Positions 863 through 62,694 of a stretch of DNA of 64,000 bases are shown here, one piece after another. The DNA lies in assembly GCF_964355755.1 (NCBI RefSeq), contig NC_092671.1:8071001-8135000 (forward strand). The letters are read 5' to 3'. The notes beneath the pieces were generated by a model that saw only the letters and a list, made by a program, of their open reading frames with translations, did not search any database and was not told the DNA's origin. Each line of letters begins with the position of its first letter. Position 1 is the first letter of the stretch. The translations under genes were made by a program, and so were the position numbers. The stretch is from Antedon mediterranea (lineage: Eukaryota; Echinodermata; Crinoidea; Comatulida; Antedonidae).

Positions 863-882
863 ATTGGTCATAAAGTCACGTG
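863..882 (+). promoter_or_regulatory. Hox5 proximal promoter: ATTGG box plus CACGTG E-box
   Basis: ATTGG (reverse CCAAT, the NF-Y target) is at 863-867 and a CACGTG E-box (USF/MYC-type bHLH) at 877-882, 149 bp upstream of the Hox5 ATG. Between them GTCATAAA (867-874) matches a Cdx/posterior-Hox type site. The same pair occurs upstream of Hox4 and Hox3 in this window. NF-Y and USF acting on the mammalian Hoxb4 promoter is established; function here is inferred. Confidence 0.6.
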
Positions 883-1025: not shown

Positions 1026-1473
1026 ATGAGCTCGTATTTTGTACACTCTTTAGCGAACGGTGGCTACCACCATGGAACGGACTTACAGGGACAGGGCCGC
1101 TACCTCACGGAGGGGGCCCAACACTACCAAGCATCCACGCCACCAATTAGCGTATCTAACTATAGCTACAACTATAATTCACAAGTAGATGGTAGTTTCT
1201 ACGCTATGAATAGATCTTCAAACTTAAGCAATCCACCTAGGTTAAGTCATACCCCTCAGACTTTACCGGAAACAACGAATTCGGAGAGGTTTGTGCCGAG
1301 TCAAGGAGGTATGGCTAATTGTCATGGGGTAACCCCAACAAGAGGATGCCAAACAGCTACAGAAGTAAAGGGTAGTCAAAACTCACCGGGGATTCAACAA
1401 GTCAGTCCCGGTATCCAATCACCCCACAACGAGCATATTTATCCATGGATGAGGCGAGTCCACTCGAGTACTG
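1026..1473 (+). CDS. Hox5: Hox5, coding exon 1
   Basis: First coding exon of an Antennapedia-class Hox transcription factor (nuclear, anterior-posterior patterning). It encodes residues 1-149 plus one base of codon 150. The N-terminus MSSYFVHS matches the MSSYFVNS signature of Hox5-7 proteins, and a Tyr/Asn-rich NYSYNYN stretch lies at about residues 45-51. The PBC-interaction motif IYPWMRR has YPWM at residues 139-142. The exon ends at ACTG|GTAAGT, a consensus donor giving a phase-1 intron. The start is the first ATG after the promoter module, and no upstream ATG lies between E-box and start. The middle is low-complexity Ser/Pro/Gln, typical of the family. Hox5 rather than Hox6/7 is assigned from the tail encoded by exon 2. 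Confidence 0.93.
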
Positions 1474-6652: not shown

Positions 6653-6927
6653 GTATTAGCAGCATAGAGCCAGCCAAACGATCACGCACAGCTTACACTC
6701 GTTACCAAACACTAGAATTAGAGAAAGAATTCCATTTCAACCGGTATTTAACAAGAAGGCGGCGTATAGAGATCGCTCACTCTCTCGGCCTAACAGAACG
6801 ACAAATCAAAATATGGTTTCAAAACAGAAGAATGAAATGGAAGAAAGAACACAATGTTAAAAGTATCTCCCAACTAATGGCACAAGAATCCTCTACAACG
6901 GTGGAAACACCAACCGCATTACAATGA
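6653..6927 (+). CDS. Hox5: Hox5, coding exon 2 (homeobox)
   Basis: Second and last coding exon; with exon 1 it makes a 240-aa protein (241 codons including stop). The acceptor CAATTTAG|GT restores Gly150. The 60-residue homeodomain is residues 157-216, starting [20 protein letters not shown] and carrying the helix-3 core [13 protein letters not shown] with Gln50, Asn51 and Arg53. [15 protein letters not shown] and the following NVKSIS (compare vertebrate Hox5 KLKSMS) identify Hox5. Gly occupies homeodomain position 39, where vertebrate and fly Hox5 have Cys. The C-terminal tail is short (24 residues). The stop is TGA at 6925-6927. Confidence 0.95.
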
Positions 6928-29194: not shown

Positions 29195-29275
29195 CTAGGT
29201 AAGATCTACCCTGTAGATCCGAATTTTGTGTAAAATGATATCACAGATTCGGGTCTCGAGGTACCTCTTGACTAG
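29195..29275 (+). ncRNA. mir-10: microRNA mir-10 precursor
   Basis: The 5' arm at 29207-29230 begins TACCCTGTAGATCCGAATTT, the bilaterian miR-10 mature sequence with intact seed ACCCUGU. The 3' arm (about 29242-29263) carries the complementary AGATTCGGG..CTC..AGGTA. Pairing continues below the mature region (CTAGGTAAGA at 29195-29204 with TCTTGACTAG at 29266-29275), giving a roughly 80-nt hairpin with a small AT-rich loop. Position between Hox5 and Hox4 on the Hox strand is the conserved bilaterian location. The mature has four T after CCGAA where the usual form has three, a one-base insertion outside the seed. Known role: post-transcriptional repression of Hox and other mRNAs. Confidence 0.96.
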
Positions 29276-36808: not shown

Positions 36809-36831
36809 ATTGGTTTATTTCGTACCACGTG
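36809..36831 (+). promoter_or_regulatory. orphan ATTGG + CACGTG pair upstream of Hox4
   Basis: ATTGG at 36809 and CACGTG at 36826 are 17 bp apart, as in the Hox promoters, followed by TTTATAAAAT near 36871. This could be a distal Hox4 promoter or an enhancer 6.8 kb upstream. No first exon is visible. Confidence 0.35.
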
Positions 36832-43447: not shown

Positions 43448-43469
43448 ATTGGCTACCGGTTGTCACGTG
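43448..43469 (+). promoter_or_regulatory. Hox4 proximal promoter: ATTGG box plus CACGTG E-box
   Basis: ATTGG at 43448-43452 and CACGTG at 43464-43469 (16 bp apart) lie 147 bp upstream of the Hox4 ATG, nearly the same distance as at Hox5. NF-Y and USF control of mammalian Hoxb4 through equivalent sites is established; homology of the sites here is inference. Confidence 0.65.
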
Positions 43470-43610: not shown

Positions 43611-44055
43611 ATGAATTCATTTTTAAGCTCAACATCGCATGGTATAGATCCAAAGTTTCCTCCGATCGAGGAGTACTCGCAGTCGAACTATATTCCAACT
43701 GGACAACTTTACGGAAGTCAATACTCCCCTTTTTCGTCGCAACATTCAAATCAGTCATGTAGTTATTCGCCTTACACATCGATGGCCACTCCATCGTATG
43801 AACAGTGGTATGCAGATTGTAACTATAATCAGTTAAACTCCAGTCAAACAGGGTTTGCGTTTAGTGGTACTGATGTAGCAACGGCAACGCAATGGAGCCA
43901 TAAGTCTCCATTTCAACCTACGGTACCAAGCGTCTCACAATCATGTGTTGATACGGCAGCTACATTTTTTAGGAGCACAAGTCAAAAGGCAACAAAGCTA
44001 GTCGATAGCCAACCCCGTCTTTACCCGTGGATGAAACGACTTCATGTGAATCCAG
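43611..44055 (+). CDS. Hox4: Hox4, coding exon 1
   Basis: Encodes residues 1-148 plus one base of codon 149. The N-terminus MNSFLSS..GIDPKFPPIEEYSQ matches the vertebrate Hox4 signature MNSYMVNS..YVDPKFPPCEEYLQ, which is diagnostic for this paralogue group. A Ser/Tyr/Gln-rich middle follows, then LYPWMKRLHVNP, with YPWM at residues 138-141 (PBC cofactor contact) and the Hox4-type tail KKVHVN/KRLHVN. The start has A at -3, and no earlier in-frame ATG exists. The donor AATCCAG|GTAAGG gives a phase-1 intron. Hox4 acts as a nuclear transcription factor in anterior-posterior patterning. Confidence 0.95.
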
Positions 44056-62276: not shown

Positions 62277-62300
62277 ATTGGTCTACATATTGGTCACGTG
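62277..62300 (+). promoter_or_regulatory. Hox3 proximal promoter: ATTGG boxes plus CACGTG E-box
   Basis: ATTGG occurs at 62277-62281 and again at 62289-62293, with CACGTG at 62295-62300, 78 bp upstream of the first in-frame ATG. The first ATTGG is 18 bp from the E-box, close to the spacing at Hox4 (16) and Hox5 (14). Confidence 0.6.
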
Positions 62301-62305
62301 GTGTT

Positions 62306-62376
62306 ATGATTCCTAACTACATGAACGAGGGATGCCCAAGATTTGTCAGATGGAAATAAATTTTATCGAGAAATGA
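62306..62376 (+). promoter_or_regulatory. uORFs overlapping the Hox3 start
   Basis: Two upstream frames precede the main ATG. 62306-62359 has 17 codons ending TAA. 62332-62376 has 14 codons and its stop TGA overlaps the Hox3 ATG (ATGA at 62373-62376). If the transcript starts near the E-box, both would be in the leader and could tune initiation. Confidence 0.35.
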
Positions 62377-62694
62377 CGATGCAAAGAGGTATTTTTGACA
62401 GTTCGCAGATTTACAGTGAATACTACAGTAATGGTGGTTTTGGTTTTAGTAATTCGCAATTTTATTATGATCAAATCAACTCAAACAGTTATCAAAACGT
62501 GCAAGCAGACGACTCACCGGTTGGCGCCTCCGCCTTTAATGGCCAAGAATCGCAGCATCCAACTCCAACGACATGTGGAAGCGACCAGGCTTTGACATCT
62601 AAAAACTTATCAATCTTGCCAAAAACTATTTATCCATGGATGGTAGAATCCCGCCAAAATTCAAAACAAAAACCGACAGAACCCGAACCCCTTG
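62373..62694 (+). CDS. Hox3: Hox3, coding exon 1 (homeobox exon outside window)
   Basis: Encodes 107 residues plus one base of the next codon. MTMQRGIFDSSQIYSEYYSN followed by GGFGF resembles the vertebrate Hox3 opening (MQKATYY..GYS..NGFGF). The hexapeptide region TIYPWMVESRQNSKQK matches the Hox3-specific QIFPWMKESRQTSKQK, with YPWM at residues 87-90. The donor CCCCTTG|GTAAGT leaves a phase-1 intron, as in the two upstream genes. The first ATG is 62373; the second (62379) aligns with the vertebrate start and may be the one used. The homeodomain lies beyond the right edge. The exon is short compared with vertebrate Hox3, which carries a long Pro/Gly-rich region after YPWM. Confidence 0.93.

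What the first reader, a model, noticed from the sequence alone, without database searches (positions are those of the whole stretch)
863..882. Shared ATTGG + CACGTG promoter module upstream of all three Hox genes
Seen directly: ATTGG then CACGTG in the same orientation upstream of Hox5 (863/877), Hox4 (43448/43464) and Hox3 (62277 and 62289/62295). Start-to-start spacing is 14, 16 and 18 bp (6 for the second Hox3 ATTGG). The E-box is 149 and 147 bp before the ATG of Hox5 and Hox4, and 78 bp for Hox3. Established: NF-Y (CCAAT) and USF (E-box) act on mammalian Hoxb4 promoters. Inference: this may be an ancestral core promoter of anterior/central Hox genes, kept across paralogues and possibly synchronising the cluster.
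Basis: partly seen in the sequence, partly recalled or inferred. Interest (0 to 1): 0.8.

Follow-up and report, generated by a model that had tools for sequence, protein, structure and literature searches.

The report
Shared promoter switch across Hox genes
A short two-part control sequence, at three genes spaced as in human DNA, sits in the same orientation just before five neighbouring Hox body-plan genes of this animal, which suggests that they share one kind of start switch; binding has not been tested.

Summary
Outside the window, Hox1 and Hox2 carry it too, both with spacer 11. So 5 of 11 located Hox promoters have ATTGG-N8-13-CACGTG in gene orientation (spacers 11, 11, 13, 11, 9 for Hox1-5), against 0 of 37 usable forkhead/bHLH control promoters. 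Hox6 and Hox11/13a have the same layout at spacer 11 with one mismatch in ATTGG. Eight of 11 have RTCACGTG within 370 bp of the ATG; 3 of 37 controls have TCACGTG. Genome-wide, ATTGG-N9-RTCACGTG occurs 73 times in 354 Mb, and 3 of the 73 are the Hox1, Hox2 and Hox4 promoters. Orientation and spacing match human NF-Y/USF-MITF sites (PMC7793273, PMC7046753), and HOXB4 is a known NF-Y/USF target. Best reading: an NF-Y + USF/MITF-class composite promoter element, strict at Hox1/2/4, looser at Hox3/5. It is not Hox-specific (415 N11-12 copies, repeats included). Ancestry and 'synchronising' are untested; no related animal genome was available.

The parts
863..867 (+). ATTGG (inverted CCAAT box), Hox5 proximal promoter
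   Evidence: Read; pair with 877; spacer 9
876..882 (+). TCACGTG E-box (GTCACGTG), 149 bp before the Hox5 ATG at 1026
1026..1473 (+). Hox5 exon 1 coding part (hexapeptide IYPWMRR); 3' end read by eye from the GTAAG donor
   Evidence: ORF; homeobox at window 6676-6846 (C2:8077676)
43448..43452 (+). ATTGG (inverted CCAAT box), Hox4 proximal promoter, -163 from ATG
   Evidence: spacer 11
43463..43469 (+). TCACGTG E-box (GTCACGTG), 147 bp before the Hox4 ATG at 43611
   Evidence: among the 73 genome-wide matches
43611..44055 (+). Hox4 exon 1 coding part (LYPWMKRLH); 3' end read by eye
   Evidence: ORF; homeobox C2:8117104
62277..62281 (+). ATTGG, first CCAAT box of the Hox3 promoter (spacer 13)
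62289..62293 (+). ATTGG, second CCAAT box of the Hox3 promoter (spacer 1)
62294..62300 (+). TCACGTG E-box (GTCACGTG), 78 bp before the Hox3 ATG at 62373
62373..62694 (+). Hox3 exon 1 coding part (IYPWMVESR); 3' end read by eye
   Evidence: ORF; homeobox C2:8139362 outside the window
36809..36831 (+). Further pair ATTGGTTTATTTCGTACCACGTG, spacer 12, between mir-10 and Hox4; candidate distal Hox4 promoter or enhancer (inference)
   Evidence: one base from the N12 class pattern (CCACGTG instead of TCACGTG)
29200..29271 (+). mir-10 precursor (landmark between Hox5 and Hox4)
   Evidence: Rfam RF00104, 54.4 bits

Best explanation
The pairs are composite proximal-promoter elements: an inverted CCAAT box bound by the NF-Y trimer and, about one and a half helical turns downstream, an RTCACGTG E-box bound by a USF- or MITF/TFE-type bHLH-zipper protein. 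At Hox1, Hox2 and Hox4 the spacing (11 bp) falls in the range preferred by human NF-Y/USF and NF-Y/MITF sites. At Hox5 (9) and Hox3 (13, with a second CCAAT box at 1) the parts are the same but the spacing is relaxed. NF-Y would open the promoter nucleosome, and the E-box factor would hold it open and recruit H3K4 methylation, giving these genes a common competent promoter on which cluster-wide regulation acts. Shown here: sequence, position, orientation, spacing, enrichment over control promoters and over the genome, and an NF-YA gene in this genome. Inferred: which proteins bind, that the element lies upstream of the true TSS, and the chromatin step.
For: Held-out Hox2 (N11, E-box 202 bp before ATG) and Hox1 (N11, 97 bp). 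5 of 11 Hox promoters against 0 of 37 usable controls, Fisher P 2.7e-4; TCACGTG 8 of 11 against 3 of 37, P 5.8e-5; mean GC of the two sets is similar, 0.344 and 0.356. In 2,000 dinucleotide shuffles of the 11 promoters the most with an N8-13 pair was 1. Of 5 held-out RTCACGTG promoter E-boxes, 4 have ATTGG with at most 1 mismatch at exactly N11, P about 5e-7 (N11 was chosen after seeing part of the data). These 8 promoter E-boxes read RTCACGTG in gene sense against 2 of 28 other E-boxes of the Hox loci, 8 of 28 on either strand. Genome-wide: N11-12 415 against 61 backwards control; ATTGGN9RTCACGTG 73 against 3, with 3 of the 73 at Hox1/2/4; N1-31 2906 against 1973; opposite order not enriched, 2323 against 2401. 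Human USF1/2 and MITF sit 10-12 bp 5' of CCAAT (PMC7793273 passages); CCAAT downstream of the E-box by 17-18 bp (PMC7046753 passages). HOXB4 needs the NF-Y/USF complex (PMC3675019 passages) and its -263 to -116 region from the start codon (PMC3454409 passages); the Hox4 module here is at -163 to -142. NF-YA present.
Against: No binding, TSS or cross-species data. Hox3 and Hox5 miss the preferred spacing; in a sample of 68 distinct spacers N9 and N13 had none, though one search lists copies of both. In that sample N12 leads with 9, but N20 has 6 and N17 and N27 have 5 each, so the spacing peak is modest there. Hox7, Hox8 and Hox11/13c lack the pair and TCACGTG within 500 bp; Hox11/13b lacks the CCAAT half; Hox9/10 exon 1 was not located in 20 kb. 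With exact pairs only, the held-out test (2 of 8 against 0 of 37) gives P 0.028, and under the most generous genome-wide rate 2 of 9 gives P 0.042. Control starts are the most upstream in-frame ATG and some may be wrong. A USF gene was not looked for.
Confidence: 0.7

Rival explanations
1. General promoter furniture: NF-Y/E-box pairs occur at many promoters of this genome and the Hox genes happen to be among them; nothing Hox-specific is involved.
For: 415 N11-12 copies genome-wide; a 73-copy N12 class ATTGGNTNATTNNNNATCACGTG exists. I did not establish whether these lie at promoters.
Against: 0 of 37 usable control promoters carry a pair. Four N11-12 pairs, all in the orientation of the flanking Hox genes, lie in the 398 kb Hox span against 0.47 expected, P 0.0014, or 1e-4 for one strand. 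Even if all 928 N8-13 copies sat at promoters of 25,000 genes (gene number assumed), 5 of 12 has P 4.5e-5; for the held-out genes alone, 2 of 9, it is only 0.042.
Confidence: 0.25
2. The E-box partner is not USF but another bHLH-zipper factor (MITF/TFE, SREBP, MAX/MYC); the module then reports nutrient or growth state rather than developmental competence.
For: MITF shows the same distance to CCAAT as USF in human data (PMC7793273); that SREBP also binds E-boxes beside CCAAT is recalled, not from a call.
Against: RTCACGTG does not separate USF from MITF/TFE (recalled); for MYC the same paper says CCAAT is missing in the peaks, with no fixed distance. USF is the factor reported at mammalian HOXB4.
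Confidence: 0.25
3. Chance co-occurrence of two common motifs, noticed after the fact.
Against: Held-out Hox1 and Hox2; shuffles, controls and genome-wide counts.
Confidence: 0.03
4. A dispersed repeat carries the pair into Hox promoters.
For: Several repeat-like families in the genome contain the pair (recurring identical spacers).
Against: The Hox1, Hox2 and Hox4 spacers differ from each other and each occurs once among the 73; blastn between the eleven 500 bp promoters (plus strand, E up to 1) lists no match at the modules. Flanks of the Hox modules were not searched against the whole genome.
Confidence: 0.02

Closest known systems
Human/mouse HOXB4 (Hoxb4) proximal promoter with NF-Y and USF1/2
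   Same: Hox4-class gene, NF-Y and USF factors; the needed region -263 to -116 from the start codon (PMC3454409 passage) covers the position found here (-163 to -142)
   Different: Here the module is shared by Hox1-5; in the passages seen, mammalian work treats single genes. The HOXB4 sequence itself was not available to align
Genome-wide human NF-Y/USF (and NF-Y/MITF) composite sites
   Same: Orientation (E-box 5' of CCAAT on the CCAAT strand) and 10-12 bp spacing at Hox1, Hox2, Hox4 (PMC7793273; PMC7046753)
   Different: One group of the human sites lies in HERV repeats; here three canonical copies fall in 75 kb of one Hox cluster. Hox3 and Hox5 deviate in spacing
HOXB7 promoter (NF-Y, YY1, Sp1, USF-1; Meccia 2003)
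   Same: A second mammalian Hox promoter with NF-Y and USF-1 named in the paper's title
   Different: Seen only as a reference in PMC3976385; its layout was not read
C. elegans egl-5 regulated by NFY (Deng 2007)
   Same: NF-Y acts on a Hox gene in an invertebrate
   Different: Repression of a posterior Hox gene; no E-box partner in the passage seen (PMC11802806 text and reference)

Membership tests
NF-Y/USF-MITF composite promoter element | CCAAT box and CACGTG E-box within one element | tested here: met
   Hox1-5, 5 of 11 located Hox promoters
NF-Y/USF-MITF composite promoter element | E-box lies 5' of CCAAT read on the CCAAT strand (ATTGG then CACGTG) | tested here: met
   All five; no CACGTG-N1-31-ATTGG on the gene strand of the 11 promoters
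NF-Y/USF-MITF composite promoter element | Spacing 10-12 bp between CCAAT and E-box | tested here: inconclusive
   Met at Hox1, Hox2, Hox4 (N11) and at 36809 (N12); not met at Hox5 (N9) and Hox3 (N13, N1)
NF-Y/USF-MITF composite promoter element | E-box flank of the USF/MITF type, RTCACGTG (consensus recalled) | tested here: met
   8 promoters have one in gene sense; 2 of 28 other E-boxes of the Hox loci do, 8 of 28 on either strand (the Hox11/13b E-box, printed among the others, is counted as promoter; a second Hox11/13a E-box at -141 lacks it and is among the 28)
NF-Y/USF-MITF composite promoter element | Trans factors encoded in the genome | tested here: inconclusive
   NF-YA domain present in two neighbouring pieces on C7; NF-YB, NF-YC and USF not searched for
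NF-Y/USF-MITF composite promoter element | Occupancy by NF-Y and USF, promoter activity | not testable with these tools
   Needs ChIP, ATAC/CAGE, reporters
Ancestral Hox promoter module | Present at orthologous promoters in related species | not testable with these tools
   No related animal genome is held; one search states that G000 has no relatives here
Ancestral Hox promoter module | Present across paralogues of one cluster | tested here: inconclusive
   Hox1-5 yes, Hox6 and Hox11/13a with one mismatch, Hox7, Hox8, Hox11/13c no, Hox11/13b E-box only, Hox9/10 not located

The most novel reading that the evidence does not exclude
The NF-Y plus USF/MITF-class element at 11 bp spacing is an ancestral proximal-promoter code of bilaterian Hox genes, inherited through tandem duplication by Hox1-6 and some posterior genes, with mammalian HOXB4 as a living example. 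It would give the whole cluster one shared, chromatin-opening entry point (NF-Y plus USF recruiting SET1-type H3K4 methylation) on which collinear control acts.
Probability: 0.2. Interest if true: 0.8.

Novelty: new variant of a known kind. Interest (0 to 1): 0.58.

Why it matters
Hox promoters are usually thought of as individual, with cluster-wide control residing in enhancers and chromatin domains (recalled). A common two-factor promoter element at Hox1-5 of one cluster, at three of them with the geometry measured for human NF-Y/USF sites and with the factor pair known from HOXB4, would give a concrete, mutable target for asking whether a shared promoter code underlies coordinated Hox opening, and whether it predates the split between this animal's lineage and vertebrates.

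Tried and rejected
1) Structured RNA genes behind the N11-12 pairs: Rfam over 19 C3 loci (85.5 kb) gave 0 matches at gathering score; rejected for those loci. 2) Repeat origin: among 650 bp slices of the 19 loci, matches at the element are 23-35 bp long; exceptions are L020/L021 (107 bp across the element) and L016/L023 and L025/L027 (stretches outside it). Only 3 of the 73 N12-class copies (L016, L017, L022) were in that comparison. One tandem array of 20 N12-class copies at C7:2.284-2.322 Mb is a duplicated region. 3) Gene association of the 19 loci by downstream ORFs: inconclusive; no protein-family search was run on them. The 19 are the 22 C3 entries of the listing less 3 dropped before fetching as repeat-like (6114900, 13793374, 13915923). 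4) A shared CTAAAAAG 8-mer (4 of 11 Hox; 0 of 37 controls) is at varying positions; left as a note. 5) Hox9/10 exon 1 not found in 20 kb upstream of its homeobox. 6) Paper searches: one search held 0 papers; others (10 of 21 listed; 15 of 17; 6; 9; 1; 1) listed none whose title or abstract start is about an NF-Y/USF module shared across a Hox cluster. Passages were seen of PMC3675019, PMC3454409, PMC3976385, PMC7046753, PMC7793273, PMC11802806, PMC3308324 and PMC6307216, no whole text. Most subscription papers are not held.

Full report
Observation. The three pairs are in the sequence exactly as written: ATTGG at 863 and CACGTG at 877 before Hox5, 43448 and 43464 before Hox4, 62277 and 62289 with 62295 before Hox3. 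The distances to the start codons (149, 147, 78) and the spacings are right. The window holds 6 pairs at spacer 4-20, all on the + strand; shuffles give 0.40 on average and 2 at most in 100. CACGTG alone is in excess, 15 against 6.07.

Setting. The window is C2:8071001-8135000 of a 354 Mb genome in 18 contigs. A homeodomain search shows twelve Hox-type homeoboxes on C2 between 7.83 and 8.21 Mb, eleven on + and one on -. The numbering Hox1 to Hox11/13c follows order, hexapeptides and homeodomains read by eye; no tree was built. The animal was not identified; a Hox4 gene and 11/13-type genes in an ordered cluster would fit an ambulacrarian other than a sea urchin, which lacks Hox4 (PMC3308324 passage). 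mir-10 lies between Hox5 and Hox4.

Held-out test. I fetched 10 kb upstream of the nine other homeoboxes, then more for four of them. A likely exon 1 was found for eight of the nine, all but Hox9/10. Hox2 has ATTGGCTTACCGCGGTCACGTG, spacer 11, E-box 202 bp before the ATG. Hox1, whose first exon is 16 kb from its homeobox, has ATTGGTCACACGTCATCACGTG, spacer 11, 97 bp before the first in-frame ATG (a later ATG is possible). Hox6 has ATAGGTTCAATCGCATCACGTG and Hox11/13a GTTGGTTGATCGCAATCACGTG, both spacer 11 with one mismatch. Hox11/13b has a GTCACGTG 205 bp before its ATG without a CCAAT partner. Hox7, Hox8 and Hox11/13c have neither pair nor TCACGTG within 500 bp.

Controls. Upstream DNA of 39 forkhead and bHLH genes was fetched; 37 had an in-frame ATG with enough DNA upstream. 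None has a pair; 3 have TCACGTG within 500 bp. Against these, 5 of 11 Hox promoters have the pair (P 2.7e-4) and 8 of 11 have TCACGTG (P 5.8e-5); held-out genes alone give 2 of 8 (P 0.028) and 5 of 8 (P 0.002). Mean GC is 0.344 for Hox and 0.356 for controls. In an open k-mer count on the first nine promoters TCACGTG was the most shared 7-mer, 7 of 9, and it stays first with 8 of 11. In 2,000 shuffles of the eleven promoters the most with an N8-13 pair was 1 and the most with TCACGTG was 3. Seven of 500 shuffles did produce some 7-mer shared by 8, so the k-mer count alone is not decisive without the controls.

Genome. ATTGG-N8-13-CACGTG occurs 928 times, 277 in the backwards control; N11-12 415 against 61; N1-31 2906 against 1973; the opposite order is not enriched, 2323 against 2401 over N1-31. 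Many listed copies are repeats. Among the 100 N1-31 matches that were listed, collapsed to 68 distinct spacers, N12 has 9, N20 6, N17 and N27 5 each, N8, N10 and N11 4 each, and N9 and N13 none. The form ATTGG-N9-RTCACGTG occurs 73 times, 3 in the control; three of the 73 are the Hox4, Hox2 and Hox1 promoters within 75 kb, all in gene orientation, while about 18 of the 73 look like one repeat family by eye. The form was fixed after seeing Hox data, so this is description more than test. A separate N12 class, ATTGGNTNATTNNNNATCACGTG, has 73 copies, 20 of them in one tandem array, and 0 in the control. For the 3 copies compared, homology is confined to the element, about 30 bp. Its role is unknown.

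Mechanism. Orientation, and at Hox1, Hox2 and Hox4 spacing, are those of human co-bound sites: USF1/2 and MITF 10-12 bp 5' of CCAAT (PMC7793273, passages), CCAAT downstream of the E-box by 17-18 bp (PMC7046753, passages). HOXB4 depends on an NF-Y/USF complex, and USF1 recruits hSET1A to it (PMC3675019, passages); the needed region is -263 to -116 from the start codon (PMC3454409, passages), and the Hox4 module here is at -163 to -142. NF-YA is present in this genome. I infer NF-Y plus a USF/MITF-type factor, acting as a promoter-opening element. Binding, start sites and function are not shown.

Limits. No other animal genome could be searched, so ancestry is open. Hox3 and Hox5 deviate from the preferred spacing. 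Control ATGs are mechanical (the most upstream in-frame ATG), and the controls are two gene families only.

Noticed in passing
window 36809-36831: A pair at N12 (ATTGGTTTATTTCGTACCACGTG) between mir-10 and Hox4, 6.6 kb before the Hox4 promoter pair, same orientation; one base off the N12 class.
   Followed up: partly
G000 C7:2284281-2321810 (L072 covers part): 20 identical N12-class elements in a tandem array with a unit near 7.4 kb (by eye); open frames nearby look like a GPS-domain (adhesion receptor-like) gene, by eye only.
   Followed up: partly
L010:744, L007:5550, window 43476 and 841: CTAAAAAG occurs within 400 bp upstream of Hox1, Hox6, Hox4 and Hox5 (4 of 11 Hox promoters) and in 0 of 37 controls; positions vary, and it also occurs at four other places on + in the window.
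   Followed up: no
Hox4 and Hox11/13b upstream regions: A 17-base identical stretch TCGTTTTGAATTAAACA shared by the 500 bp upstream regions of Hox4 and Hox11/13b (blastn E 6e-4).
   Followed up: no
genome-wide: ATTGGNTNATTNNNNATCACGTG, 73 copies (20 in one array) against 0 in the backwards control; a constrained element of roughly 23-30 bp of unknown role.
   Followed up: partly
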